Assembly: GCA_964030785.1 (NCBI GenBank)
Contig: OZ034979.1
Coordinates: 5,699,423 to 5,763,422 of the forward strand
DNA: 64,000 nt
Reading direction: 5' to 3'
Origin: Siderastrea siderea
Lineage: Eukaryota > Cnidaria > Anthozoa > Scleractinia > Rhizangiidae
The notes beneath the pieces were generated by a model, which was not told the origin of the DNA, did not search any database, and worked only from the letters and a program-made list of their open reading frames with translations. Positions 29,551 to 48,894 of the stretch are shown in pieces; the stretch's first letter is position 1; the number at the start of each line of letters is the position of its first letter. Both the position numbers and the translations under genes were made by a program.

Positions 29551-29720
29551 GAGAAGAAAAAATGGCAAGGGATGAAACATAGTACCACGTGACTCGTCGG
29601 ATGTGAACCGCGACATACTGGTGACGGAAGTGACGTACTATGTTCGGAAGTTCAGCCAACCGTTACTAATCCGAAGTTCAAAACAACAGCTGATTTCAAG
29701 AGCTTGGAGGGAGATTTGAA

Positions 29721-32700
29721 ATGAAACGCGTTTTCTCCAGTGGGGAAAATCTTCCGCAGCGAAAAAAATATAAAGCGGAAGATCGTGGAAAGAAATCTGT
29801 AGTCGTGCAATGGTACGTTATATTTCTAAGTCAAAAATTCATTATTCTGCGATTTATTTTCATCGATCGATCGATCGATCAATCGATCGTTTGGTAAAAG
29901 TGTGCTTAATTTCCTTTGCAGGCTTTTACACAACTACAAAATTTCTGGGGATAGTTTTCTACCAGGAAAGAAAATTTTTGGCGATTACGTTGATAACTGC
30001 ACCGAGAAAGAAAATTATCTACTGCAAGAGATTGAAGTAGGTAGGATTCTGAAGGAGGTGTTTCCTGAAATCAGACGAGTGCAGCGACGAGTTAAAGGAG
30101 TAAGAACATGGACGTATACACTGTCTAAAATTCAAACTGTTGAAAGAAACGAGAACACATGTTCCATTCCTACCACTGATAGCAGTAGTCAATCCGCAGA
30201 TGCAATCACATGGGAGAATTTACCAATTGTTATCTCGGAATTTGGGTGGCAGTTAGTATGTACAACTGACGACTTCCATGAATGGATTAAGCTCGGGTCG
30301 CAGGACTTGTGCGATGGAAACAGAGTATTGTACGAAGTTAAAATTTTAAAAAATTGGGATTTCACAGTTCATGTAAACAACAAAAAGGTTTCAAGAGAGA
30401 CACTGGGAATTCAAAATTTAAATCCATGCCAGCAACTCATTCGCTATCTTTTTGATATTTTGAACAAGTGTACTTTATGTAAAGGCTTTCAAGTTCCTTC
30501 CAAAAGGATAACCAAGGACGTTTGTGGTAACATGACAGGAAGAACTGAAGAATGGTGCAGTCGAGAAGATGACACAGTAGTGCTTCAACATCGGTCCACG
30601 AAATGTTCGGTGTTACTTCCGAACGATTTCAAACGAACGACTAGACGCTACTGTGAGAACTGTGTAAAGCTAAAGAAGAGCTGTAATACAAATTTGGTCC
30701 CTGAAGTAGACATGGAAAAGTCACAACCTTCAGCCAAAAAAAGGGACAGTTACATGAGTGAAAATGAATTAAGAGAGAAACTTAATCATGAAAGAACAAG
30801 ACGAATAAATGCCGAGAGGAGGGAAAGTTATTTAAGGGATAAAATAAATCAAGAGATGAAGAACTTTGACGAAGAAGACCACAAAGATTTCTCTTACATG
30901 TTCCAAAGAATAAATAAAGGGTCAGTCAGTGAGGACATGAAGATATTTTGGGAAGAGCAAGAGAAGGCATTGCATGCCAAGAGTCCCAGAGGCTACAGAT
31001 GGCATCCAAAGTATGTTTAAACTTAAACCATGTATTGCTTTTAACTACAATACAGTAGCAATATTTATAATAAAGTATGGACAACAAGTAACAACAGCAG
31101 CAACAATTAATGCAGTGATGATGATGATGATGATGATTACAATGACGACACAAATTAATGAAATGAGCAAGTTTTAGATCAGGGGAGAGTTGATAAGAAC
31201 CTTTATCAACTTATTGGCAATTGGAGAAAACAAAACAGTTATTTTCTCTTTGTTCATCCTCCATAAACTTTGACCTATGGTATTGTAATCTTCTCTCTCC
31301 TTAGGATAATTAGAATGTGCTTATCAATATGGAACAGAAGTCCAGAGGCCTACAAAGAGTTGCGAGAATGTGGCATGTTAGTTCTTCCTTCTGGTAGGCA
31401 TCTCCAGAATTACAAAAACTCCTGTTCTCAAAACCCCGGCTTAAATGAATCTGTGGGGAAATGGATGGCACAAGAGGCAAAGAAAAGAAATATAGGCCTT
31501 GAAGGAAGGGAAGGTGGAATCATTCTTGATGAAATGGCTATACAGGTATACTTGTATAAATAAAAATAAAATAAATCACTTTATTTAAGTGTCAGAGTAT
31601 TAGCAATTGCTAATTGGCAACACTGTAAATAAGGAAACAGATATCATAAATCAACAGAAGCTTAATTAAATTTTCCCTGGTAGGAGGCTGACCAGTTGGC
31701 TATTAACAAAGTGTGGAGGAGTTGAATTTGGGGCCACCAAAGACAAATCCATCTAGTGCCAGGGAGGGGGATTGAAAGCTGGGACCTCTGGATTCTGGGT
31801 TCAGCACCCTACCACTAGGCAACATTTACCCACTTGTATAAACATTTTATTTCATTTTTTGATATCAATTCAAAGAAACTCTTAGAAGTGAAATTTACAA
31901 TACAGCTATTGTTTTCAATTTAACAAACAAAAGCTGCACTTGTAAATTACAATTGCTAAAGGTTTATTGAATTGACCATTGGCTAGAACACTTTACAACT
32001 GATTAAACACATAAAGCCATTTTTTTTGTATTTGTTGTTAAATAGGAGGAACTGCAGATGAAATCAGTGAATGGAGTATGGAAACTAATTGGGCTTGTTT
32101 CTTTGGGGGAGGACTACAATTGCATGCAAAGAATTATGACAGGTTAGTATTTAAAGTACTTTACCTGTTCATTACAAACAAATAAATAATTTAATAAATA
32201 AATATGTATAAAAAGAGCATTCAAAATGTCATTCTTCACTAACACTGAGTTTTATTCTTAATGTAATAAATTATAGAGACAAAAAAGAAAGATAGGAAAT
32301 AGACCACCTATTTACTAATAAGTAAATGTAATCAAAGGTGGGTAACTTAACACAATGCCCGGTTACTTGCTACAACAAAAGTACTTAATTATTTATTTCA
32401 CTTTAATTTATTTTTTTTAGGAAAAGAGACCATTGAGGTAGCTACACATGTCCTCCAATTTGTGTTCCTGGGAAACAATGGTTTTCGCTTCCCATTTGCA
32501 CACTTTCCCACCACAGAAGTTGATCCATCTACATTATATACTCAATTTTGGAAAGCAGTGGGCTGGCTAAGGCGATATGGTTTCCAGACTAACTTTTGTT
32601 GCTGTGATGGTGGAGAAGCAAACAGAAGCTTCATCAAAATGCATTTTAAAGGGAAAGACCCTGTCAAGGAGAAGTTCACTACAATCAATCCTAATACACA

Positions 32701-34555
32701 AGAAAGCCAATGGTGTTTCTACTTGATCCTTCTGTAAGTTTACCATAATTTTTTTCTAAATCTTTCCAAGAGGCCCTGTTATTTTTCAGGGGAAGGGAAG
32801 GTAGGGGGTGGGGGGGGGGTGGGGTTTAAGAATCGTAATCCTGAGTCAATTCTTGCAATAATCAATGTCCCATTTTTTGGTAAAAAGCAAATAAATAATT
32901 TCAAAATATACAATGTAGAAACCAGTAATAATCATTTCTTGTAACATTAAAAAGTGCAGTTACTAAGTGACCATAACATTAATGAAATGCACAATTGTAG
33001 GAATAGTTTATTAAGTTTTAACATTTGCACTGGATTTTTATTCAAATTAAATCATCAATAAATTACTGATAATGACAATTAAAGATAAAGTATTGCAGCC
33101 AGTGGACTCTGCCCATCAGATCAAAATAACCAATAACAGGCCATAATTTCAAAGTGCAAAACAAACAATACATAATTTTTAAATTAATTAGCCAAATAAT
33201 ATGAATGTTTTCTCTAAATTAGCACAACATTAAGAAGCTGCGAAACAATCTCGAGAAGAGTCGACCTGGGGGAGTACGACTACTGTCATTTGGTGACAAG
33301 ACGATCCAGTGGAAACATCTGTACCAAGCTTACAAATGGGACCAGAGTACCAATTCATTGAAAATTCATGAACGACTCTCTGAGGAGCATTTCAGTCTTG
33401 GTTATGCAAGTAGAATGAGGAATCATCTTGCCGAGGAAGTTCTTTCAAAGAAAATGTTATACCTTCTACAGGTACATATTAGATTTTTAAAAACTACATA
33501 ACAATTGGTGCCCACTTTAGGAATCTCGTTCATTTTCAGGAATTTCATGAACAATATCCCACAGGGGTTTCATATAGGACAAAACTCAATACTAACCTGA
33601 AGCACAAACACCATACCCAAGGAGGATTATTGGAAATTCCAAGTAGATGGACAGAATACACCATATTCGTATTATCGGTATTGGACTGGAACAAGCTTGC
33701 AAATGGAGGCTCATGCGGGGGAATATCATTAAAAACAGCTTCATGTCATTTGCATTTGAAAAGATTACCTGCATGAGCCTCCATAATTTGCAAGCTAGTT
33801 CCAGTCCAATACCAAGAATACGAAAAAGGTCTATTGAAAAGATAGAATTTTTTAGGAAATATGAGTACAAGTGAACCTAAACTGAAATTTCCTAGGGGGG
33901 GAGGGTTCAAGGCCAACCCCCCCCGGGAGAGTATGGACATTTGCAACAACACCAAAAAATAATACTGATACTGTACCTATGTATTTTTTATTCTCACTGT
34001 CAGGCTTACAAGAAAAATTGTTCACAGACACAAGGCCATGAAGCTACATATCTAGACAAGACAATAGAATTTATTGACATGACCAGCAAAATAGTCAATA
34101 TTTTTGATGACCGAAGACCTGTAAGCAGTTTGGATGATCATCGCTTAGCTACCAATCGCGAAGTTCTTGATTATCTAAACAGATGGGAGAAAGATGCTGA
34201 GGCACATACAGATATAAGTAAAGCCGAGAGAGCAAAGAGACTTTTGTCCGACAAACTTCGATTTGATCTCTCTTCGATGATAATTGGTTTTCGTGAAGTG
34301 TGTAGAATTGCCTTTGAGCATTTTCCTGGATCCACCATATCGCCATTTCGAACAAACAGTGACTTAGTGGAAAACATCTTTTGCCAGGAACGTGGACACA
34401 ATGGACAGAATTCCAATCCAACCTATGCACAATATGGCCCAACCATGAACAGTATTGTCCTTGGACAGACAACTACAACAACAAGCAGTAACACTGGATC
34501 TGTAGAGAATTTGTGTTTCTTTAAAAATGGAACATTTAGGTCTAAAAAGATGTAG
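29721..34555 (+). CDS. RFX-domain P-element-type transposase (one-base frameshift in exon 5)
   Basis: Seven exons fit splice consensus and phase: 29721-29812, 29922-31010, 31305-31545, 32046-32142, 32421-32733, 33223-33471, 34004-34555; about 877 residues if the frame were continuous. Residues about 28-105 resemble an RFX DNA-binding winged helix: QWLLHNYKISG, FGDYVDNC, EVGRILKEVFPEIRRV, RTWTYTL. A cysteine pair region (YCENCVKLKKSC) and a charged coiled coil follow, then the P/THAP9-type helix region with LPSGRHLQNYK. Catalytic-type positions are D469 (ILDEMAI), D609 (LLDPS) and E817 (LVENIF), followed by NPTYAQYGPTMNSIV. Exon 5 lacks one base near 32707: before it the frame reads TINPNTQE, after it PMVFLLDPS, which joins in phase to HNIKKLRNN of exon 6. 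P-type transposases normally begin with a THAP finger; none is seen. The copy is probably inactive unless this is a sequencing error. Confidence 0.82.
31561..31831 (-). mobile_element. tRNA-derived SINE in transposase intron 3
   Basis: On the minus strand the 5' part has a tRNA-like A box region (TTGCCTAGTGGTAGGGTGC) and a B-box-like segment (GGTCCCAGCTTTCAATCC), and the 3' end is AAATAAAGTGATTTATTTTA. It is flanked by an exact 11-base duplication ACTTGTATAAA at 31550-31560 and 31832-31842. It sits four bases after the exon 3 donor. Confidence 0.8.
33668..33822. mobile_element. Foldback element in transposase intron 6
   Basis: Arms of about 50 bases, containing GGTATTGGACTGGAACAAGC and its near complement, enclose about 55 bases. 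No target duplication could be read confidently. Confidence 0.7.
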
Positions 34556-35319
34556 AGTCCTAACAAAAAGGGCATCCCAGGCCATGAAACAAGGTCCTAT
34601 TGTTGAGGTGCCTTCCATTTTTCCTGTCATGGCTTATGGGGGATTGTGGGTATTTACACAAAGATTTTTAAAATTTATTTATTAACAATTGGCTGATTTA
34701 CGTGTATCAAAACATGCCTGCACTCATCTCGGAATGCAGACGTTGAGCCTATATTCACCACAGGGTCAGTGAAAATTATACTTACAGGTACCAGTAGTAC
34801 CAGTACGTAGCTAAACTTCAATTTTTGGTGTTATTAAGACTTAACGAAAATTTCCCCTTGTTCTGGATTGCATTATGGAATACCTCTAAAAAGCGTTAAA
34901 GATACATTCAAAAAATATAGCTTGAGAACTTAACATTTATACACGTCATTAACACTTCTCAGCAGCATGAAGTTGTCAATAACAGTAATGACGAGCCAAT
35001 GTCAACAACAACACTTTGCTTGCCCTGGTGCATTTTTCATATGAGATGTTTTAAAGTATACCATGTATAATGGTTCACCTCTTATATGCTTTGATTCCAT
35101 GATCTTCAATCAGTATAAGTTTCAGGACATCATGTTCCCTGATCGACTAATTTTCAGGATAAATTTATTAAACAAAGTGCTAAGAGCATTCCGGGTGGCA
35201 TTGGCTCTTACTAAACTTCAATGTGCATTTCTAGAAATACTTTGAAGGACTTCATTATAAACCCCTTACACAAAAAAACTTAATTATTGTGCTATGTTAC
35301 TCAATGTAGGACATGATAA
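34556..35319. other. Intergenic region between transposase and helicase 3' ends
   Basis: The two genes converge here. No exon or repeat is seen. It presumably holds the poly(A) signals of both genes. Confidence 0.5.
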
Positions 35320-38300
35320 TCAATTGTGTTTTTCATGCCATGTGATTATGGCCTTTAAAGTGGTCTTAAATTGAACTGATCTTTCATAAGCTCTTGCCAT
35401 TGCTTCATTGGCATGCTGATCTCCACGAAGAATCTCCTCTTCGTTTCTGGATGGCTTGAACCGTTTCCTTATAGGCTCATGACTTGCTCCTGAAGATAAT
35501 CGTGCCGCCTGTAAAGGAGCTTCAGTGCCAACCACAGCCTCTGTTAAGTAAAAACAATGACACATTTAAGATTATATTATTTTATGATGTGAGCAATATT
35601 TTTCACAGAATGTAAATTTTAAGGGCTTTTTAAGAGTTGATGTTCATGAAGTATATATATCATTATTTTTTAATTAATGTTTATTTTAACATGCTAACAT
35701 GTACCTTGCAATGGGTCAGATGTTATGTTCCCCTGGATATTTGACGTGCTTGCAACTGGTTCGTTCACTACCTGCTGACTCACTGCAACTGAAATTTTTT
35801 TTCCAAATGTAATTAATACATGTAAATAGTACAATAAATAGAGTAACTGTTGTTTCCATCACTAACAAAACCAACCTTGCAATGTTGTGCTCTCTCTCTG
35901 GACACTGGCCTCTGTAGTGATGATTCTGGCATTTTCTTCCTGATGACTCACTGCACCTGCACAAGAAGTGTCAACACATGGCAAACAAAGAAAGAAAAGT
36001 TTACTCATTTGGGCAGGGAATCTTTTGGGAGTTTAATATACTTCACCCTGTACATTGTGTAAAACAAATCAAAAGGTGTCTCATTCTTAGACATAGAGAA
36101 GATGGGTGTAAATAAGGTTTCGAGGATCCATACACGTGTATCAATATTTATAATAATTACATTGTAATAAATGCATTTGCAATTTATTTAGACTTTTTTT
36201 GTTCAGGAACTTTTATTAATAAACTGACCTTCCAGGATTCTCTCATTTTTTATGTTCGATATCCCAAAACTCTTTCCATTTTCCACTTCTGCTTTCCATT
36301 AATTTTTCTCCTGACTATCTCATTTCCAAATAATTGTTATCCCAAATGTCCTCTATTTTTTATTTTATTTTTATTGTTTTACCCCTCTTTCAGAAAAACA
36401 CAAATTCATGCAAATACTGTTTCCATTATTTTATAACGAAGCAGCTCAGAACCCATCCGACTAAAATGATCATTCAATAATTTATTTCTGAACTGGATTG
36501 ATGTCTTACCTGAACTTCCTGGCTGTGTAGCATCCCTCAATGCAGCAGGATTGGGCACATCACCTGAAGCTTGGATTTTGGTAGTCAACTTTTCTGAAAG
36601 TCTAGCCTTAGACTCACTTCGTTTAAATGCAAGACCATATCCTTTGCACAGTAGTTGAAGTTCATCTTTGGAGTACACTGTACTCTGAAAGATCAATGGC
36701 TGCTCAGTAATCATTGCTTGTAAGCGAATGTGCGATTCCTTTAGATTAGTTGAAGAGTCACTACGAATTGATGTCATGGTGACTTTGCTGGAAATCAAGT
36801 CTTTCTTTTTCTTTTTTTCAACAACCTTTTTACGGTGGGCCTCTGTTTTCTGTAATTTGTAATCTCGCCTGAAGTCTCGAAGAAATTCACCAACACCCAT
36901 TTTCACGTATCTGGTGCTCACGTCGTCATACAGCTGGGCAATTAAATCAGCATCACACAAGGACTCGTCACAGTTTTCATTTTCTCGCTGAGAAAATAGA
37001 GCTTTCCACTTGTGTTTCAGTTGCTGATTGTCCAGCATCCTAGCAAGTGTGATGCTCACTAAATCTTCTTTGTTAGTTGCCAGACTCTGGTTGTTCAGCA
37101 AGTTTACTCTCCCTTGCTCTAACTCAAGACTCCATTCAAACATCTGATCTGTGATGTGGACAAGTCTTCCTTTCTCATATGTCCATGAGAAAGTCACATT
37201 CAAAGTATCCTGGTACTTTGATTCTTCTTTTGCCATGCCACTTGACCAAATCAATTGTTCGAGAAGTTCTTTCTTGGCATAGGCTTCTTTTGCTTTCTTC
37301 CGTACTCCAGGATCTGACGAGCGAATGTTGCTCTTGAAGTACTCTTTGCATCGATGCCTTTCTTTGGCAATAGCCCAGGCACCACAATACCTAACTTTTC
37401 CTTTCCCTTCAGCTGACATATTTTGGACATCAATGTTACAAGCTTCATTACTTAAAGTTGGGAATTGTTGTCCAACTACAGATTTCAAAACAATTGAATT
37501 CAGGTTGTAAATCAATTCTGTCAAAGCATGGTAATGACATTCAGAGAACATGGAGACAGGAATGTTAATTAACATGCTAAATTCCTTTTCCAGGGCATCA
37601 GAGACCAGCAAAGAGTGTAAGTCACTAAAGTGGCATGTGAAATCCTTGCGTTTCACTTTCCTGGTTGGATTTTCTGAGACTTGCTGTCTTATCAGTGAAA
37701 ATATTCTATTCCACTGCACACTGACAAAAACTTTAGTTGACTGAAGTAATTCTGGTTCACACAGAGAGGTAAAAATGGCATTGACATTGGCCACTAATTC
37801 TTGTGCATGTAGTTCCTCTTCTTTAATTGACAGTGTTCGCAGAAAAGTGCCATAATCAAAGTCAACAGGAATTTTGTGGAATTCCTCTGATTCTGACATC
37901 TGTGATAACAGACTGTCTAAGTCTATTACATCTTCTTCAGCCTGAGCAACATTAGAATCAAGAAATGTTTGGACAATTGCATCAATTTCATCAAAGTTCT
38001 CTTCACACAATGGTTCATCATCAAAATCAAATTCTTCCTCTGTGGAAGATGACAGTGATGTCAGCTGACAGCATTTCTTTCCTGGTTGTGTAGTAGCATT
38101 TGTCACATTATCAAGAAAATTCAACACTTCTGGTGCTGCAGGAATCAGCCTATTCTTGTTGAAACCAATCACTCGCAGGTGATCCTTTGATTTTACTCTT
38201 GATATGGCCACATACAAATGTCCTGGAGCAAATTCTCGTCCACAATGTACTTCAACTGCTTCCAGTGTTTGCCCTTGGGCTTTGTGTACTGTCATTGCCC

Positions 38301-39364
38301 ACGCCAATTTTAAGGGAATCTGAGTACGTGTTCCAACCAACTTGTGAGTTTCAATTCTGTCATACACAGACCAGGTCACCCTTTCAACCACAACACTCTC
38401 AGTACCATCGCTTGTAGTGACCACTGGCAATCCATTCAAAAACGATGCCACAGTTCCTTGTACACCATTCTTGATGCGATCATTTATGTTGTAGACGAAC
38501 ATAACTTTTGCTCCAACTTTAAGAATCAATTTTTCATCTGCCACTAACTCTCTGTCCAACAATTTCTTTTCTCCGATGTCATACGCTTGAAATACCACCT
38601 CTTGACCTGGCAGGCTGTCGAACATGCACGTGTTGGAATAGTCGACATCCTCATTAAGGGGAAAAACCTTTGGAATGAAGTCAAGCTGTAATTCAGCTGG
38701 ATCCAGTGGTCTACTGAGGGTTTTAATTAAGTTCAAAGATTGATCACTGCAGCGACCTACAGAAATGTCTTTGAGGAGGTTGACAAGTTCATTGTCATCT
38801 TTTGCACGGAAACTATCCTCCAGAATCACTTGATGAGGGAATACAAACTGCCATAATTCACTCTGAAAAGCATACTTTCCCTCATCAATTGCACTTGGCA
38901 CTGGAGGCAATTGCAGGAAGTCTCCAAATGCCACCACTTGCAAACCCCCAAACATATAATTGGAATTCCGAATGTTTTGTGCAATATAGTTAATAGTTTC
39001 AAATGTCCTTTTGCTTAACATGGAAATTTCATCGATAAACAGAATTTCAGTCAATCTCCATCGGTTGCTGCATTCCTGATTGGCCAACACATTGCGTAAG
39101 AGCTGTTCTTTGGTTCCTCTACAATGTCCAATTCCAGCAAATGAATGGATCGTGCAGGCAGGGATCTCGCCATAAAGGGTACAGGCAATGCCTGTAGTAC
39201 ATGTGCAGGCAAACTTCTTATTCTTCCAATTGAGGACATCCAGAATATGTTTTGCAACATATGTCTTACCACAACCGGCAATACCACCAAAATAAACATT
39301 GTGCCCTCCTTGAACTAAATTGAAAATCAGCTGTTGCTGTTCACTTAAAGTACATGTATCAAAC
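35320..39364 (-). CDS. PIF1-like helicase, spliced, 5' end unresolved
   Basis: Minus-strand exons in transcript order: 39364-36510, 35956-35876, 35788-35705, 35540-35320, all joining in consistent phase 1; about 1,080 residues visible. The first visible exon starts after a CTTCACAG acceptor, so an upstream exon supplies the start codon. Helicase superfamily 1 motifs appear in order: Walker A GIAGCGKTY, Walker B FIDEISM, FGDFLQLPPV, NGVQGTV, TVHKAQGQTLEAVEV and YVAISRVKSKDHLRVIG. The following 500-600 residues are not recognised, apart from an acidic stretch, a Lys-rich segment and a SAP-like helix pair near SKDELQLLCKGYGL. An in-frame stop at 36406 would end an unspliced form, but GTAAGA at 36509 is a near-perfect donor. 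Such helicases occur in Helitrons and as nuclear Pif1; here it lies inside a P-type element, tail to tail with its transposase. Confidence 0.85.
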
Positions 39365-42300
39365 CTGTGAAGATACAGGAAGTGTATATTTTAGTTTGCA
39401 ACAAGGGAACATAAGAATATTTACAAAGAGAATACAGTACTAATAGGCAGTTTGTTTGTAAAAGGCATCCACGGTCCTCCACAATGCATGTGCCATCATA
39501 TACCGGTCAAATCGAAGCTTTACCATCCCTGTTGGGCAACACCCCGTGCATTTGAATTTTAATACAGTGACAGTTCGTCATTAATACCTTTCCATCGATA
39601 TTCATTTGCAATGATATGCATTAATTAGCCATGTTTTTGTTCCCACTTTATGAAAAACAGAAGAAAAATCACCATTACAGAACTCTGAAGCAGTTATCCA
39701 ATCTTACATAAAGAGTAAGTTAGACACTTCAAACACTTTCCAGAATCAACAAGCACGAAAGTATAATAAAAAAGTTGAAGAAACGTCTCACCTTTCGTCG
39801 AGGGAGGTGCGGGATTGCGGAAAATTAATTCAGAGTTTAAAAGAACGAGGCATATAACAAATGTGCTATTTTGTTATTCTTTTGTTATCCAATGAGATGC
39901 AAATGAGTGTGAGGCGTTTTTCTGCAATCCCGCACCTTAGAGCTTTCGTCAGACCTTCCCTGCATGGCCACCACGCGTTGATTCGAACAAGACTCTCTTT
40001 TAAACAAAACGCCTACAATATCACCAAGCAACGCCGAAGCTTCACATTTTCTTGAGATAGAAGAATCCAAATTGATAGGAGATAAAATAATCCGATAACT
40101 ATTTCCGATTTGAACTAACAACGGCAAACAGGGCATTCGAAATAACCCGCGAAGAGAAGCACGTTTTCGCGGAAAACGCTTGCTTTGCTCATGCTCAAAA
40201 CAATAAAATCACTCGAATGGCTTCCGGTCATGCGCATGACACAATACATGACGTATTTCCGTCACCAGTATGTAGCGGTGCACATAGTACGAAAAGCCAA
40301 CTTTCAACGCGAAATGAGCGATCGGCATAATCTCATATAAAGAATCTTTTCATCATAATGGTTTAGGTAGCTTAAAGATTACTTAAACACAAAACCGCAT
40401 GCAAAGACTCGGGCTCATTTGATAAATATGAAGCGAGTTATTGGGGAACGAAAATTCGACCGAAATCTGTTTCTTCCCTTGCCTCTATTCAGTTCGGGAG
40501 GATACCAGTTCTGGAAGAAACGAAAACAATTGTTCTACGTCACGAAACGTCATCGATCAAAACATTGGATCGCATTTCACAACAATATTCTCTGCAGCCA
40601 AATTCAAGATGGCGGACAAGCGCGAGGAAAGTACATACGATTTTTATTTAATTTCGTGCCGTAATCTTTTTTCTTTGTCGTGTTTGCAGCTCTGAAGTTT
40701 CAAACAAGTTTATTGCCAACATAAAAATGGTCGGAGTTCGCTTTCTCTTCTCGTAAGTCTACACTTTTTAGTTTTATTTAGTTTAAGCACTGGTCAATCG
40801 AAGAGAGTTTACGGAGTTTATGAGAGGTCAAACTCTCGCTCTCGTTTGGGCGGTTTGGCCTGAACTCTTGTGCTCTCCTCGACTTTGAACATGCTTAAAT
40901 TTGTCATGAGAGTCGTCGAGAGTTTTCTCTAAAGCATGACGAAATGAACGCGTCACTCGTGACGGACTTTTGATAACTCTCCTTCTGGTTTGGCCCGAGT
41001 TGATGATAGTCGATGGGAGTCGACGAAAACTCTCAATTCTCATCAACTCTTACTCGTTTGGCCCGGGCTTAAGTTGTGTGTTTTCTTTCTTTTATCGAAT
41101 GTGCCCACATATCATTGTATTTTAAGTAAAGGGCTAATGGTTAAGTCGAGCCTGTAATGCGAGGTATCATTGAAAGCGCCCCTTCATCTAAGAGTGAAAA
41201 AATATGGAGTGAGCTTGTCATATTATCGCATTTCGTTCAGACTTTTTATTTTTTAATTTTTGGTAAAACATAAAGCATGGCTCGAAAAGGTGCCATAGAG
41301 CTTGATGTAAAAAATACTGTAGTTTGGATTTCAGTATAGTGATTGGTAAATGCCTGTACCAAGAAAGGTGAAATGGAACAGTAAATGTTGGTCCTTGAAA
41401 TTGTTTTGCAGTCACACTTAATAATGCCCTTGCAGGATTCACCTGAAAATTTGATTCTGTGGTGATATAAATCCTGTGATTGCCAAAGTGTAAAAGTACA
41501 TAGAAAAGTACATTTATGTTCATGTATTGCTAGCAGAACATTTTTCATATAATTTTAAAAGTCATCTCAGATCCTGAAGGGTGTCAGAGGGTTTATTGTG
41601 AGTGTAAATTGAAAAATCCTTGGTTGCAATATATTTCATCTAAGCCTGGGAACGTTTAATTTGTTCTTGTTATCGAGACAAAAATGCAAATGTGAAAGAA
41701 GAAATAAGCAGTCAAAATGTTTCAGGTTAATACTATTTTATTTCATGTCAACACTCTACATCTTATTCTTCTTTGTTCCTCCATCCACCTAGAAACAAAT
41801 CACAAAAACAATTTTTAATTTGTTGATTTAATTTACATCCATAACTGAGCAAATCATGGGGAGGATTCACAAAGCCCTTCTCATCTATGATGTACCCTAA
41901 GTATTGGTTCTTAATAAAAGCCTATTGTTATGAAACAATACACTGAGGATTATATCTTAGTTAGGAGAGCTTTGTGAAAATACCCAAGCAGGGCTGTAGC
42001 TGCTTTGAGGCAAACCGAGGCACTTGCCTAAGTCTCTTTTTACGTTGTTTTTATTTTTTTTGAAGGGGAAAGTAAATACCAAGGAAAAGAATTTAACCAT
42101 GGACATTGCCACAGTTATACTGGCTACGGCCCTGCCAGGTCATATCTGGCACAATTCAGAGATTCTTTTGATTCTCTAATAACAAGAACTATATCATTAT
42201 AAATGTTCCTGACAGGTAATGTAATCTTACTGCCTTGTCCCCAGCATGCACATAATGGCCCAAGATAATTTAGCAGAGGGCACTGGGAAAGATGGAATGG

Positions 42301-42898: not shown

Positions 42899-42910
42899 TT
42901 CTTACAATTT

Positions 42911-43283
42911 CTGTAGGCAGTCAAGACACATGAAACTAAATTTAGCAAGGAATTAAAACTGTAACAGTAGGAGCATGAAAGATAAATCATCAGCAAACTT
43001 TAAAACAGCGATTGGCAAACACTATCAAATTTATTCGAAGTAGTAAAAATATAAATAAAGTTCCTATACTCTCACTGATTTATCACACCGTCCATTTCTG
43101 TAGGCAGTCAAGACACATGAAACTAAATTTAGCAAGGAATTAAAACTGTAACATGTACACTAGGAGCATGAAAGATAAATCATCAGCAAACTTTAAAATA
43201 GCGATTGGCAAACACTCTCAAATTTATTTCGAAGTAGTAAAAATGTAAATTAAGTTCCCCCTATATCACTGATTTATCACACC
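42911..43283 (+). repeat. 187-bp tandem duplication
   Basis: The unit starting CTGTAGGCAGTCAAGACACA at 42911 repeats at 43098 with about 10 differences, ending before CAAATGATGCC. Confidence 0.92.
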
Positions 43284-43442
43284 TTCAAATGATGCCTATA
43301 TTATGCCTCAAAACGCTAATGACTGAGCGAACATAAGCGCTCTTGTCCAGATCGAAGCGATGTATAAAGGAATGCATACGGTGTATGAGCAAAGCATCCA
43401 AGTAGTCAACTTTAAAATGGATTACCATTTTTCCTAGGTGGT

Positions 43443-43763
43443 CTATGGTGGCCTAGGTGTGCCATAGAAGAATTGTACACTATTTCAAGACTTATTTAAT
43501 GATTTTATAGTTTGATTTAATGTGTTGTATATTTTATTGTCGATTTTTTATTATTTTTCTTTCACGTTTTTTGCTTCTTAGTTTTTGATATAGTCTTTTT
43601 TATAGTTATTGTTATTCAATTTCAGTTTCAATTCAATTTCAGTGTTAAAACGAGTTTTATTTTGTTTTATTTCGTCTCAGTTTTGTTTTTCAAAAGAAAA
43701 CTAAACTGCACCATGGCCTATGAGGGCCATAGACCACAATGCCATGCACGCATGTAAAGGCGC
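43443..43763 (+). repeat. Left 321-bp terminal inverted repeat
   Basis: Complement of 48449-48769, diverging after AAAGGCGC. As the kinase start codon follows closely, the repeat probably contains its promoter. Confidence 0.9.
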
Positions 43764-43898
43764 CATTTTGAAAAACACCCAGAATTCCCTTCGCTGGCAG
43801 CAGTCTTGCACATGGAGTCGAGTACGGGTTTCTAGTTCATTGTACGTAGAGCTTGTAGTTTTCTTAGCCGTTTATCGAAGGACGAGGCACGTTCTAAA

Positions 43899-45116
43899 AT
43901 GTCAAAGAGAAGTAATCGGAAGGATGATTTCGCAAAATTTAAAGAAAAGGTGGCGAAAAAGAGAAGGGGAAAGGAAGAAGCCACAACAAACACGGACATG
44001 GACTACATCACCGTTCAGCGGCTATCATCTAGTGTGGAAGGAAGATACCAGAAATATGCCAGAATTGGGGCCTTGACAAGCGTGCCTTTAGGCTGTGAAC
44101 CCACTATTCAGAACATCAAAGAGGCTTGCAAGCGCCACTTCGATGTAGCAGATGGTATTTACTACGATGTCCTGGCAGGTGAGAGGGGGCCATCTTGGTC
44201 TGAAACGAGTCAGATATCCAATTGGAAGGTTATACATGTTCGCTTTATCGAGCGTAGTGATGAGAGCCAATTCTGTGAAAAGTCCGAGTTCAACACCAAG
44301 AAACAGTGGAAATCCCAATTAACTCCAACGAAGGCACCCCCACCCACTTCAATGTCAACTAAAGTGGTAGCCTCGGTACCACTCAGTGCCATGCTCCAAA
44401 TTGGCAAACTTATTCAGCCAACTGTGGAAATAGTTACTGTAAAACTGGAAGAATTCAAACTTTCTGAAAAATCATGGGGTCAGCCCTTTGAAGTAACACT
44501 TTCCCTGTCTAAAGAAAAATTTGCAAGTGGTTCTTTTCGTGATGCATACCTTACAGAACCACTGTCGGGTATCAGTTCTGGAAAATATGTACTTAAAAGG
44601 TTTAAAGCGGATCAACTGGAAGAAATCAAGAAGTTGTTCAAGTCAATCGAGGAACACACGAGGAAAGTGGTCCAAATGAATGCTCTCTCTAGGAACTTTG
44701 CTATTATGCAGGCCAATGAAGCACCTGTTGAATATGGGCCCCCCCTTTGCTACACAAAGGTTTACTTTGGTAAGTTGTATGGCGAGTGCATAACTGTTGA
44801 GAACTATCTGGAGGGAGAATTCCAGAAATATATCAATAACACAGGAGATGTCTTTGGTGACAGTGAGTTAACCATGAAGGCAGAAGCATTCTCACATTTT
44901 ACTTACCAAAAGTTAGGGCAGCAGCTCATGGTTGTGGACATTCAAGGGGTAGGCCATCAACTTTTTGATCCAGAAATTGCAACCTCCACCTTAATGGATG
45001 ATGACATGTCTATATTTTTCTGCTGTGGAAATCTTTCCACACAGGCAATCACAAAGTTTAAGGCTGTGCATGTATGCAACAAATTTTGTAACATGCTTGA
45101 ACTTAAAAAAATGTGA
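43899..45116 (+). CDS. Alpha-type protein kinase carried by a transposon
   Basis: Single-exon 405-residue protein. The N-terminal 165 residues are basic at the start (KEKVAKKRRGK) and otherwise unrecognised. The alpha-kinase domain spans about 190-403: Gly-rich loop FASGSFRDAY (207-216), catalytic-type lysine in KYVLKRF (about 232), adenine-pocket segment VENYLEGEFQKYINN (300-314), AFSHFTY (about 329-335), active-site MVVDIQGVG (344-352), DPEI, and the Gly/zinc segment GNLSTQAITKFKAVHVCNKF with HxCxxxC cysteine pattern (377-396). All core motifs of the eEF2K/myosin-heavy-chain-kinase family look intact. The fold is atypical, unrelated in sequence to ordinary Ser/Thr kinases. The substrate is unknown. 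It faces the element's integrase gene tail to tail. The ATG chosen is the first in frame after the terminal repeat. Confidence 0.9.
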   Translation: MSKRSNRKDDFAKFKEKVAKKRRGKEEATTNTDMDYITVQRLSSSVEGRYQKYARIGALTSVPLGCEPTIQNIKEACKRHFDVADGIYYDVLAGERGPSWSETSQISNWKVIHVRFIERSDESQFCEKSEFNTKKQWKSQLTPTKAPPPTSMSTKVVASVPLSAMLQIGKLIQPTVEIVTVKLEEFKLSEKSWGQPFEVTLSLSKEKFASGSFRDAYLTEPLSGISSGKYVLKRFKADQLEEIKKLFKSIEEHTRKVVQMNALSRNFAIMQANEAPVEYGPPLCYTKVYFGKLYGECITVENYLEGEFQKYINNTGDVFGDSELTMKAEAFSHFTYQKLGQQLMVVDIQGVGHQLFDPEIATSTLMDDDMSIFFCCGNLSTQAITKFKAVHVCNKFCNMLELKKM

Positions 45117-45933
45117 TGGTCAACCAGCAACATTAATGTCAAGGGACTTTTAATCATCCAGGTGTTCCATACTGTGAAATATCCTGTTTCTTGTATGGTG
45201 TTTGGATTTGAACACGTTTTGTTGTTAATGGACAAAAAAAAAACACAAACTACTGTGTATAATGCATTATGTGTTGCAGTTTCTTTATATGTTACAGTTC
45301 AGTTCCAAGGTTATTATACCTGCTTGTAGGCCAGTGACTAAATTTCAACTGTCAGTTAGTCTTTCTGACTCATTCCATATCCAGAATTTTGAATGTTCAA
45401 GTTTTGGTTGATAAAACGATATGACTTAACAGCTGCAATTGAAAATGTGGTCTCAGGTGGTTTGGTTTAATATTATTGCCAGGTGTTGTGTTCTATATTA
45501 TATAACATAACTATACATCAACTATGTATACATTTATGAAAAAGTTGGTCAGAGTATGCTATGATATATTGTGTTTACATTTCGCAAACAAGATAATTAG
45601 GACAGTTTTATTAACTTTTGGGAAGTTAAAATTGAAATATAAATGTTTCCAGTGTCAGACTGCAATAGTTATATCTTTGTCACTTTTTTGAGGTATACTG
45701 ATTTTTTAATTTTTGTACCACAAAACACCAACTGTATATTTAGCACTAGCCTGCATAGCAAGCCCAAAGGGGAGGGCAAGGGAAGAAAATACCCCTTTCC
45801 TCCTCCCCTCTAGGCCAGCTATGCAGGGTAATTTAGTACAGAGTTTCTTTGAACTCTCCAACTGATGTGGGGTTACAGCATATTATCAAGCTAAATTAGA
45901 ATTACTGATATTTTGTCCAACCATATAGCAGTT

Positions 45934-48418
45934 TCAAAATGCATTTTTATTGACATGAGATCGCAGAAAGAGGTAAGCAACCTTTGCATCTTCTGGATCT
46001 ATGTCATTGGCATCTGGTACATGTCGCTGACACTCTTGTCGCACAGATGGCTTTAGATAATCATCATTTTCCTCAAGAACTTCAGAAAACTCAGCAACTT
46101 CAAGTAACTGTTCTTCTGTAACCTTGATGCCACATTTTTCTCCACCATATTGTTCCGGAAAGTGGTAAATATGTTCAGGCACTCCTGCTGGAAGTTCTTT
46201 TCCCCTCTGCTTCCGGCTCCTGTGGTTATTCCACACACACGTTCTGAAAACATCGAGCTCCTTTTGAATGACAGGGATGTAGACATATGCTAGCAGGTCC
46301 CTAAGGGTAGATGTAAAGTATACAAACAGTTACAAAAAATACAAGTTTGGCCTCCAATACTCCTAAAAATTAATAAAGAACCCCAGTTTCAAGAGCTGAG
46401 CTTGTTTCAAAGGCTAATGGAACCTCTGGAATCCTATCATACATTACTATTATCTCTTGAGTAATTTTGTTTTGTATTTTAAAAATACAACAAATTAAGG
46501 CAAACTACACTAAAATAAAATGTACACTTGCTAACACATCCACTATGGATGCTCTGGTACTAATTGGTTACTAGGTTTTCACACTTTTATGAAATTCACT
46601 CTACTACCATGTTAGATTTGTAAGTAAATTCACCATGAAATACATGTACCTGTCTGTTTGATCACTAGCGTCATATTCACCACATTCAACTAAGGATTTG
46701 AGCTGATCTTTAAAATATCTCTCCATTCTTTCTAATAGCTCCCGCCACCACCTTTCTATTTTATTTTGGGTTGAGGGTCCATAGAGTACTGCATCTGTAC
46801 ATTTCTCTAAATCTCCTTGTTTCTCTCTAAGAAAGCAATGGATTGTTGCCATAACATCAGTTTCGGTACCTCTGTCTATCCGCAATGTCTCGGGCAGAAC
46901 TGCAGAAAAATGTACATCAACAGTAATTCATTTCATTTTTTCCTAGCCAACACTGTAATGAATTCTGTATTCTGATTGGTTCTTATAAGAGCAGTCCAGA
47001 TTTTCTTTCCACGATCATGATAAAGGTTTTGTGTGTTTATTTTTGAAAAAGTTAACCACACAAAAAATAACCTCGGAGGTGGGAATAAGTAAGTTATTTA
47101 CCAGCTTAGCGGTGGTCTGAATAGTGAAAAACTGTAACTGTGGCCAAAGGCCTACAACATCGCAACATGTACAATGTAGTATTACTCTAACCTCAATTTT
47201 ATCCTGCAATCTGGGCGAAACCTCTCTTACACCCTGTCACCACCCCCCCACCCCCCCACAAACATTGGTAAAGATTTGTTTGTGTACTTGGGGGACAGCA
47301 CTTTCAAGAACTTGTTCACAGTTTTCACTATATGGAACCCTTGGGCAGTAAATAACATATCTTCTAAAAACACACATTCTTATAACTGGTTTAAATGTCA
47401 TTCAACTTTCAAGTGGATAAAGGATTAATATATATAGAATACTATTTTGGGTGTTTTGATTTAGTTCACTGTTATAATTTGATACTAATATTCCAGGTTT
47501 CTGACAAACATCATTACACCAAATTACATGTATATCTTTAGAAGCAATAGGGCTGACAAGCTAAACTGAGATATGATTTGCCTTCTATATTTTGCCCCTT
47601 ACCTCTAGATTCAAACAGATATTCAAAATAGAACCTTCCTATAACCTTGGGTTTGTTGTTTGAGGTCCACACTCGCAGGAAATTTACTCTCCCGCTGTAG
47701 GTATCTAATCCTCCGTAAATACACAAGGGAAACATTGCCTTTTGGTACCCACAAAGTTTATCATGTCCATCGCATGACATAGTACAGTCAGGTCCCTATT
47801 ACAAAAAAAGCACATGCAAGAAGGTAAAGTAAACAGAAACAGTGAGCAATTCTGGTCCTGTTAGAGATGTATACACGGATGGAGACGAAATGCAATGCAG
47901 CTGTTTTGAAAATTTGCTGCTTTATTTTTTGGGGGTTTCTTTATAATAATAGGTTGCACGATGTTTAAGTTAAATTAACTTAAACTTACACCAGTGACAA
48001 ATGCATTCAATCGTTGTGGTCTATTCGATTGCCCCACTCCTCCTCTTGATTCGAGTCCATCCGGGTCAGCTTCTCCCATCGCCGCGTACACCAAATCGCG
48101 AGGAACATTTAGGCCATGAACCTCACGCACCTTCTGTTGCATTGCTCGGTAACCCAAAAGCCTACCAGGACCTTGCAACTCCTTTTTAACAGCTTCTTGC
48201 ACATCACTAACTTCTACTCCATAGTCTGTGTACTTGAGGTCGAAAAACTGGAGCCTTCTACCAAGGCTTCTTAAACTCCATGCGTACATTGGATAATCTA
48301 AGCTCACAAAATCTAAAATTTCCTGTCTTCGCAGATTTCTGCGAACATACTGTTCAAGATCTTGTTTTAGCGCATCGTCATGCTGCCATTCGGCATTTCT
48401 TATTCGCGACTCTGCCAT
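45934..48418 (-). CDS. DDE integrase-type transposase of the alpha-kinase element
   Basis: Four exons on the minus strand: 48418-47990, 47795-47603, 46899-46650, 46300-45934, with GT-AG borders and matching phases; 412 residues. The N-terminal region has a helical DNA-binding style (LRRQEILDFVSLDYPMYAWS) and GPGRLLGYRAMQQKVR...GLNVPRD typical of integrase-core proteins found in animals. A retroviral-integrase-like fold is suggested by D152 (CDGHDK), D216 (RIDRGTE) and E256 (NKIERWW): spacing D-63-D-39-E. The tail contains YVYIPVIQKELDVFRTCVWN and an acidic C-terminus ending NKNAF. The start codon lies 31 bases inside the right terminal repeat. No frameshift or stop was found, so the gene may be active. 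Confidence 0.88.
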
Positions 48419-48448
48419 TTTGAATTACGCGCGATGCCTTTTGGGAAA

Positions 48449-48769
48449 GCGCCTTTACATGCGTGCATGGCATTGTGGTCTATGGCCCTCATAGGCCATG
48501 GTGCAGTTTAGTTTTCTTTTGAAAAACAAAACTGAGACGAAATAAAACAAAATAAAACTCGTTTTAACACTGAAATTGAATTGAAACTGAAATTGAATAA
48601 CAATAACTATAAAAAATACTATATCAAAAACTAAGAAGCAAAAAACGTGAAAGAAAAATAATAAAAAATCGACAATAAAATATACAACACATTAAATCAA
48701 ACTATAAAATCATTAAATAAGTCTTGAAATAGTGTACAATTCTTCTATGGCACACCTAGGCCACCATAG
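48449..48769 (-). repeat. Right 321-bp terminal inverted repeat
   Basis: Complement of 43443-43763. The integrase reading frame begins just inside it, so the same sequence could drive either gene. Confidence 0.9.
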
Positions 48770-48894
48770 TGGTCACCAGCGACGAAACTTTCCAAAAACA
48801 ACATTTATTAACGGCACAATGGAGGAAAATTGTTCTCTTGGACTAGAAAATTCTCCATGACAGAGAAAACAAAACAAAAAAAACGTATACTTAC

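What the first reader, a model, noticed from the sequence alone, without database searches (positions are those of the whole stretch)
43443..48769. A DNA transposon carrying an intact-looking alpha-kinase beside its DDE integrase
The sequence shows 321-bp inverted ends, a TGGT duplication, a complete alpha-kinase with glycine loop, lysine, DIQGVG and zinc motifs, and a four-exon DDE gene with no lesions. Alpha-kinases are normally host genes (eEF2K, TRPM6/7, MHCK). A kinase as stable cargo of a cut-and-paste element would be a way to spread kinases through a genome, and could explain lineage expansions of this rare family.
Basis: partly seen in the sequence, partly recalled or inferred. Interest (0 to 1): 0.9.

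Follow-up and report, generated by a model that had tools for sequence, protein, structure and literature searches.

The report
Jumping gene with built-in protein kinase
This is a young, intact-looking jumping gene from a coral-like animal that carries a protein kinase as one of its own two lasting genes, and because the same pairing recurs across the genome, many 'extra' kinase genes in such animals are probably transposon genes.

Summary
The element is 43444-48768: 320-bp inverted repeats (319/320 identical), ends TATGG..CCATA, a 6-bp target duplication GTGGTC (not 4-bp TGGT), a complete 405-aa alpha-kinase (+) and a convergent four-exon DDE transposase (-). Ends, duplication and gene pair match IS3EU, whose TET-bearing fungal members are reported to carry an alpha-kinase opposite the transposase (PMC12730594, passages): a known kind, not an unprecedented capture. 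In the window's own genome the repeat search found 14 ends, making 7 elements; all 7 carry the kinase. Of 90 related transposase loci found, 74 have a kinase within 8 kb (72 convergent), against 0 of 53 more distant ones. Kinase and transposase trees agree in most supported groups; active-site residues persist although synonymous sites are saturated between families. So the kinase is a co-inherited core gene, not passive cargo. Its conserved N-terminal domain has no Pfam or PDB match. The repeats end close to both coding starts in 15 of 15 elements measured, suggesting a shared promoter. Likely role (inferred): phosphorylation controlling transposition. Alpha-kinase 'expansions' elsewhere may be IS3EU genes.

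The parts
43438..43443 (.). Left copy of the 6-bp target-site duplication GTGGTC
   Evidence: identical to 48769-48774
43444..43763 (+). Left terminal inverted repeat, 320 bp, begins TATGGTGGCCTAGG; its inner edge is 135 bp before the kinase ATG
   Evidence: the sequence was found at 14 ends in the genome
43899..45116 (+). Alpha-kinase gene, single open frame, 405 aa
44007..44252 (+). N-terminal domain of the kinase protein (aa 37-118), highly conserved in the relatives, no significant Pfam or PDB match
44523..45089 (+). Alpha-kinase catalytic domain (PF02816, 1-185 of 185)
   Evidence: residues conserved
45934..46300 (-). Transposase exon 4, with stop
46650..46899 (-). Transposase exon 3 (Asp216 and Glu256)
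   Evidence: conserved columns
47603..47795 (-). Transposase exon 2 (Asp152)
47990..48418 (-). Transposase exon 1 (ATG at 48418)
48449..48768 (-). Right terminal inverted repeat, 320 bp; its inner edge is 30 bp before the transposase ATG
48769..48774 (.). Right copy of the 6-bp target-site duplication GTGGTC

Best explanation
A recently inserted, intact-looking autonomous DNA transposon of the IS3EU type, with two convergent genes: a DDE transposase and an alpha-kinase. SHOWN: anatomy, 6-bp target duplication, the kinase in all 7 elements found of this family, recurring convergent pairing in many families of this genome, largely parallel kinase and transposase trees, conserved kinase active site. 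INFERRED: the transposase cuts the element out and inserts it at 6-bp SWNNWS-like sites; both genes are driven by the same regulatory sequence, because the long inverted repeats end close to both coding starts, so kinase and transposase appear together. INFERRED, about even odds: the kinase acts on the transposition machinery (the transposase itself or the repeat-bound complex, possibly recruited by its conserved N-terminal domain) and so sets when or how often the element moves.
For: Repeats 319/320 identical, 6-bp duplication. 14 ends = 7 elements, 7 of 7 with the kinase. 25 of 25 fetched kinase loci (the 20 best-scoring besides the window and 5 lower ones picked by hand; two overlap) hold a transposase on the opposite strand. 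74 of 90 related transposase loci have a kinase within 8 kb, 72 convergent; 0 of 53 more distant transposases do; about 0.2% expected by chance. Kinase and transposase trees share the groups {window family + Exaiptasia P0011/P0122}, the 11-row group with L029, L011/12/19 and Exaiptasia P0062/P0123, and {L017, L028, P0106/P0196} (cross-species pairs identified by equal contig length). 9 contig lengths over 5 kb are shared between kinase and transposase hit lists against 0.04 by shifted control. Active-site residues conserved (Lys 118/120, catalytic Asp 109/110, zinc ligands 109/111, 105/107, 103/106, 100/102) while synonymous sites are saturated between families (pS 0.77-0.91, pN 0.28-0.48). 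Inverted-repeat length (214-533 bp) tracks the two gene starts in 15 of 15 elements measured. Literature: IS3EU has usually 6-bp duplications, TAYGG..CCRTA ends, alpha-kinase opposite the transposase in TET-bearing fungal families.
Against: No IS3EU reference sequence could be compared directly. No expression, phosphorylation or transposition data. Within families, changes are few and only weakly depleted of amino-acid changes (15.5 synonymous, 30.5 nonsynonymous, rate ratio 0.53, p 0.02-0.05), so constraint is inferred mainly from between-family comparison. 16 of 90 related transposase loci and 27 of 99 kinase loci have no partner within 8 kb; some are decayed or unscored, some may be real exceptions; 2 pairs are on the same strand. 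6 of the 20 loci failed the strict end-and-duplication search. Trees differ in what the L017/L028 family joins next and in the place of L030. In the 120 listed transposase homologues the third catalytic residue reads Glu in 84 of 118 (many are single-exon fragments that end there), though it is invariant in the 44-row alignment. The kinase evolves about twice as fast as the transposase on the window-Exaiptasia path (0.74 against 0.38), which could also mean a host-directed role.
Confidence: 0.85

Rival explanations
1. The kinase is kept because it acts on the host, not on transposition: for example it phosphorylates silencing, chromatin or cell-cycle factors so that the element escapes repression, as has been suggested for TET/JBP genes of fungal transposons.
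For: The kinase path from window to Exaiptasia is about twice that of the transposase, and a more distant set of transposases in the same genome has no kinase nearby (0 of 53 within 8 kb), so a kinase is not a universal need of such transposases. TET/JBP in fungal transposons is proposed to counter silencing (PMC12730594, abstract passage).
Against: No host target is known; the tight, long-lasting pairing and the apparent shared promoter fit a direct partner of the transposase equally well.
Confidence: 0.35
2. Passive or accidental cargo: a host alpha-kinase gene captured once and dragged along without selection.
For: The kinase domain is related to those of TRPM7, eEF2K and MHCK A; within-family changes are near neutral.
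Against: 7 of 7 elements carry it; pairing and co-divergence across families and across species contigs; active-site residues kept although synonymous sites are saturated.
Confidence: 0.03
3. It belongs to another superfamily (Ginger1/2, IS481EU, or a new one) that happens to share long inverted repeats and a kinase.
For: No direct comparison to IS3EU reference proteins was possible; NCBIfam gives three transposase homologues only weak hits, below the curated cut-offs, to IS481 (best 5.9e-6) and IS3 (best 0.0017) models; IS3EU and IS481EU are not separated in the published tree.
Against: TATGG..CCATA ends, 6-bp duplications, no near-invariant Cys (so no HHCC motif) in the transposase alignment and the opposite-strand alpha-kinase all match IS3EU as published.
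Confidence: 0.08
4. Chance neighbourhood or assembly artefact: a host kinase gene next to a transposon.
For: None found.
Against: The same 5.3-kb unit recurs at seven places with seven different 6-bp duplications.
Confidence: 0.01

Closest known systems
IS3EU transposons of fungi (Pucciniales, Tuber) as described in PMC12730594 (passages seen)
   Same: 6-bp target duplications, inverted repeats over 30 bp ending TAYGG..CCRTA, transposase and alpha-kinase in opposite orientations
   Different: The fungal families described there also carry a TET/JBP dioxygenase between the two genes. The 0.8 kb between the two genes of the window element holds no ORF of 100 aa or more apart from one antisense to the kinase end. 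Host here is an animal. The fungal kinases could not be compared.
IS3EU/GingerRoot superfamily (PMC10045372; outline, results section and passages seen)
   Same: TA..TA termini, usually 6-bp duplications, integrase-like DDE transposase without an HHCC motif
   Different: That main text does not mention a kinase (0 occurrences); GingerRoot was described from a clubmoss.
Alpha-kinases with solved structures (TRPM7, eEF2K, MHCK A, ALPK1)
   Same: Catalytic domain alignable along the active-site and zinc residues
   Different: The transposon kinases carry a conserved N-terminal domain with no significant Pfam or PDB match.
Ginger1/Ginger2 DNA transposons (PMC2836005, search listing only)
   Same: Integrase-like DDE transposase
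   Different: Not compared here in sequence, companion genes or duplication length.

Membership tests
IS3EU | 6-bp target-site duplication | tested here: met
   Window GTGGTC; of the other 6 elements of the family 5 are exact and 1 has one extra base; 14 of the 20 loci passed a strict search with identical 6-bp pairs, 6 did not; the 5 loci were not put to that search
IS3EU | TA..TA termini, TAYGG..CCRTA, inverted repeats over 30 bp | tested here: met
   TATGGTGGCC at the ends of the 14 loci and the window that passed, repeats 214-533 bp; one window-family element has a changed left end, TCTGG
IS3EU | Alpha-kinase gene in opposite orientation to the transposase (reported for TET-bearing fungal families) | tested here: met
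   25 of 25 fetched loci; 72 of 90 transposase loci have a convergent kinase within 8 kb
IS3EU | DDE transposase without an HHCC zinc motif before the core | tested here: met
   D152, D216, E256; no near-invariant Cys in the summary of the 44-row alignment
IS3EU | Transposase groups with IS3EU/GingerRoot transposases in a tree | not testable with these tools
   No Repbase sequences held; weak NCBIfam hits to IS481 and IS3 models only
Alpha-kinase family (PF02816) | Full domain with catalytic Lys, Asp and zinc ligands | tested here: met
   PF02816 1-185 of 185, E=2.4e-34; residues
Alpha-kinase family (PF02816) | Kinase activity | not tested
   Needs the bench

The most novel reading that the evidence does not exclude
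A clade of eukaryotic transposons is built as a transposase-plus-kinase pair whose kinase controls its own transposition through a previously undescribed targeting domain, and the lineage expansions of alpha-kinases (anthozoans, tunicates, rust fungi) are copies of this transposon gene rather than host gene families.
Probability: 0.4. Interest if true: 0.78.

Novelty: new member of a known kind. Interest (0 to 1): 0.55.

Why it matters
It turns a curiosity (a kinase in a transposon) into a testable rule: in this genome 72 of 99 alpha-kinase loci found sit beside a related transposase. Public annotations include names such as TRPM6, eEF2K or myosin heavy chain kinase for such proteins in corals, anemones and tunicates, so counts of 'expanded' signalling genes there may be inflated. 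One fungal genome paper calls the family highly expanded in the rusts (PMC4469406, passages; its table row reads 79 and 39 in two columns that I take to be the rusts, 5 in one and 0 in seven), and rust IS3EU elements are reported to carry alpha-kinases, so the same explanation can be checked there by sequence alone. If the kinase controls transposition, it would be an unusual case of a transposon carrying its own signalling enzyme as a lasting partner.

Tried and rejected
Rejected: host gene with flanking exons (the unit recurs at seven places). Rejected: 4-bp target duplication (6 bp fits the family members). Rejected: accidental cargo (see rivals). Tried without result: viral contigs and phage records for relatives of the kinase (none); profile of the N-terminal domain against PDB (best E 0.78) and its 16 members against Pfam (one member at E 0.11), neither significant; transposase profile against PDB (one hit at E 0.034 to a fatty acid decarboxylase, not credible); literature for a coral alpha-kinase expansion (none); PMC6505742 (passages) proved to be about another kinase. 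dN/dS as a ratio was not usable: within families too few changes, between families synonymous sites saturated. One more distant transposase locus was looked at (L038): a zinc-ribbon plus integrase protein with no convincing inverted repeat within the 5 kb and no kinase; it is one of 53 and may not be IS3EU.

Counts to read with care: the genome searches score only the best candidates (101 of 916, 150 of 633, 103 of 196, 130 of 130), so totals are lower bounds. The split into close (at least 37% identity or 42%) and distant (at most 33% or 39%) transposases was set by me at the gap in identity; one distant locus has a kinase within 30 kb. One search used 111 typed kinase rows and gave 72 of 97; on checking I found two kinase places and six short rows left out, and with these gives 72 of 99, transposase counts unchanged. 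One search used 120 of 220 kinase homologues and 120 of 145 transposase homologues (those listed). One search used the 21 kinase ORFs of at least 400 aa of the 26, which then ended in an error. The script stopped after the kinase tree; L026 had an empty transposase chain because the script took the second of two kinases there, and L027 (overlapping it) was not entered; the transposase tree is (27 rows against 28).
Full report
What is there. The window element spans 43444-48768 and is flanked by the 6-bp direct repeat GTGGTC (43438-43443, 48769-48774). Inside lie two convergent genes. On the + strand, 43899-45116, is a single-exon 405-aa protein whose second half is a complete alpha-kinase domain (PF02816, 1-185 of 185, E=2.4e-34), matched in solved structures by the TRPM7, eEF2K and myosin heavy chain kinase A domains. 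On the - strand, 48418-45934, is a four-exon gene with GT..AG introns and no stop, giving a 412-aa DDE protein (D152, D216, E256) of the integrase-core family PF24764 (E=2e-18), whose homologues weakly resemble IS481 and IS3 transposase models, below the curated cut-offs.

Is it more than chance. A 320-bp inverted repeat with matched 6-bp flanks does not arise by chance, and the genome settles it. A search of the window's own assembly (830.9 Mb, 402 contigs) with the repeat finds 14 copies, which by position pair into seven elements of about 5.3 kb on six contigs. The kinase search lists seven copies at 99-100% identity, each in a 426-aa open frame (stop to stop), one in each of these elements. 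The duplications of the seven differ: GTGGTC, CATGTG, CACCTC, GACGTG, CACATG, GTAGTC and GTCGTC (the GTAGTC copy has a changed left terminus and the GTCGTC copy one extra base on the right). Five aligned copies differ pairwise by 11-17 substitutions over about 5.3 kb. The family is therefore young and was recently active. The C9 copy has a stop in transposase exon 1, so not all copies are intact, and the window copy itself has Tyr at kinase position 89, where the other 83 of 84 aligned kinases have Cys.

The kinase is not cargo. I fetched 25 kinase loci: the 20 best-scoring besides the window's own family order and 5 lower ones picked by hand; two overlap one place. All 25 hold a transposase on the opposite strand. 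The 21 kinase ORFs of 400 aa or more fall into seven families with 32-58% amino-acid identity between representatives. In a strict search, 14 of the 20 loci and the window have ends starting TATGGTGGCC and identical 6-bp flanks; 6 do not (L011 and L028 have arms without matching flanks, L023 an extra base, L021, L026 and L027 no end arms found). Working from coordinates over the assembly, 90 transposase loci of the same kind were found in two searches; 74 lie within 8 kb of an alpha-kinase, 72 of them convergent, 2 on the same strand, and 16 have none within 8 kb. Of 53 more distant integrase-like loci none has a kinase within 8 kb and one has a kinase within 30 kb. Chance would put 0.2% of random places within 8 kb. 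From the other side, 72 of 99 kinase loci have such a transposase within 8 kb and 27 do not. All totals are lower bounds because only the best candidates are scored.

The pair has been inherited together. Kinase and transposase trees share these groups with strong support in both: the window family; the window family with Exaiptasia P0011/P0122; an 11-row group of these with L029, L011/12/19 and Exaiptasia P0062/P0123; and L017/L028 with P0106/P0196. They differ in two places: the L017/L028 family joins L033 in the kinase tree (85/87) but L020/L021 in the transposase tree (100/99), and L030 sits with L031 and L032 in the kinase tree but weakly elsewhere in the transposase tree. The three cross-species pairs were identified by equal contig length in the two hit lists. 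Over all lists, kinase hits and transposase hits share nine contig lengths over 5 kb, against 0.04 expected when the lengths are shifted; one shared contig is only 5,435 bases long, about one element. Named hosts in these lists are anthozoans (Oculina, Exaiptasia, Acropora, Stylophora, Desmophyllum, Actinostola, Paramuricea, Dendronephthya, Xenia, Porites), a hydrozoan (Clytia), tunicates (Ciona, Phallusia) and, for the transposase, limpets (Patella, Lottia). Source names for the kinases include TRPM6, eEF2K and myosin heavy chain kinase, which the anatomy here suggests are misleading.

It is under constraint. Of 120 listed homologues (of 220 found), Lys233 is kept in 118 of 120, Asp347 in 109 of the 110 that reach it, Asp357 in 106 of 109 and the zinc ligands in 109/111, 105/107, 103/106 and 100/102. 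Between families in this genome, synonymous differences are saturated (pS 0.77-0.91) while nonsynonymous differences are 0.28-0.48. Within families the few changes (15.5 synonymous, 30.5 nonsynonymous) lean only slightly to constraint (rate ratio 0.53, p 0.02-0.05), as expected for copies that drift after insertion. In the transposase lists the two Asp are kept in 118/119 and 119/119, the Glu in 84 of 118, where many hits are single-exon fragments; it is invariant in the 44-row alignment. The kinase protein also has a conserved N-terminal domain, aa 37-118, with 14 columns invariant in 84 sequences and no significant Pfam or PDB match. It is a natural candidate for the part that brings the kinase to its target.

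How it may work. In 15 of 15 elements measured, inverted repeats of 214 to 533 bp end within about 140 bp of the start of both proteins (in L020 they run slightly past the starts of both matches), so repeat length follows gene start from family to family. The simplest reading is that the repeats hold the promoter and leader of both genes, which are therefore expressed together. Target duplications of 18 elements favour G/C at positions 1 and 6 (16 and 17 of 18) and A/T at positions 2 and 5 (17 and 18 of 18), a symmetrical 6-bp target SWNNWS. With a co-inherited and probably co-expressed kinase, control of transposition by phosphorylation of the transposase complex is the most economical role; action on host silencing or cell-cycle proteins is the main rival, favoured by the faster evolution of the kinase (path window-Exaiptasia 0.74 against 0.38 for the transposase).

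What is known. Passages of PMC12730594 state that TET-bearing IS3EU transposons of rust fungi have 6-bp duplications and ends TAYGG..CCRTA, and that all TET-bearing IS3EU families have transposase and alpha-kinase genes in opposite orientations. The results section of PMC10045372 gives IS3EU TA..TA termini, usually 6-bp duplications and no HHCC motif. The features testable here are met; direct comparison with IS3EU proteins was not possible. So this is a new animal family of a known kind. In the listings of searches I saw no paper that describes the kinase in animal IS3EU elements or explains alpha-kinase expansions by it; I opened only the papers named here, and Repbase reports and most subscription papers are not held. 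PMC4469406 (passages) calls the alpha-kinase family highly expanded in the rusts, with a table row reading 79 and 39 in two columns whose heads I did not see; PMC5295586 (passage) lists the domain with a ratio of 2.34 in a table of a wheat-rust genome comparison; PMC4150398 (passages) lists one rust alpha-kinase under diversifying selection. Whether those are transposon genes is a direct sequence test that I could not run.

Host. The assembly is unnamed; matches fall on 14 contigs tens of megabases long, and the closest named transposase is from Oculina patagonica (97% over 64%), which suggests a stony coral. This is inference.

Noticed in passing
window 29830-39390: Three ORFs with an RFX-like DNA-binding domain, a weak TNP-like transposase fragment and a 994-aa PIF1-like helicase, with a 36-bp inverted repeat (86%) at 29594-29629 and 40257-40292 around them: possibly a second, larger DNA transposon.
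   Followed up: partly
window 42907-43286: Two tandem copies of about 190 bp directly upstream of the element.
   Followed up: no
G000:C12:18602153-18602464: A kinase piece inside an 1822-aa open frame with a related transposase 3.2 kb away; may be a nested insertion or a fusion.
   Followed up: no
L026/L027 (G000:C7:12039689-12055355): Two kinase genes of one family on opposite strands, lying in the two arms of an almost perfect 1.9-kb inverted repeat, with a transposase beyond each: two elements joined or inserted back to back.
   Followed up: no
L038 (G000:C1:38397700-38402700): One of at least 53 more distant integrase-like loci: zinc ribbon plus DDE core, intact frame, no convincing inverted repeat, no kinase; many such loci have intact frames and are unassigned.
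   Followed up: partly
window 44163-44165 (kinase aa 89): Tyr in the window copy where the other 83 aligned kinases have Cys.
   Followed up: no
G000:C2:37866277-37867512 and C2:38043126-38044361: Full-length intact kinase frames with no scored transposase within 8 kb: unscored exons or candidates for kinases left behind.
   Followed up: no
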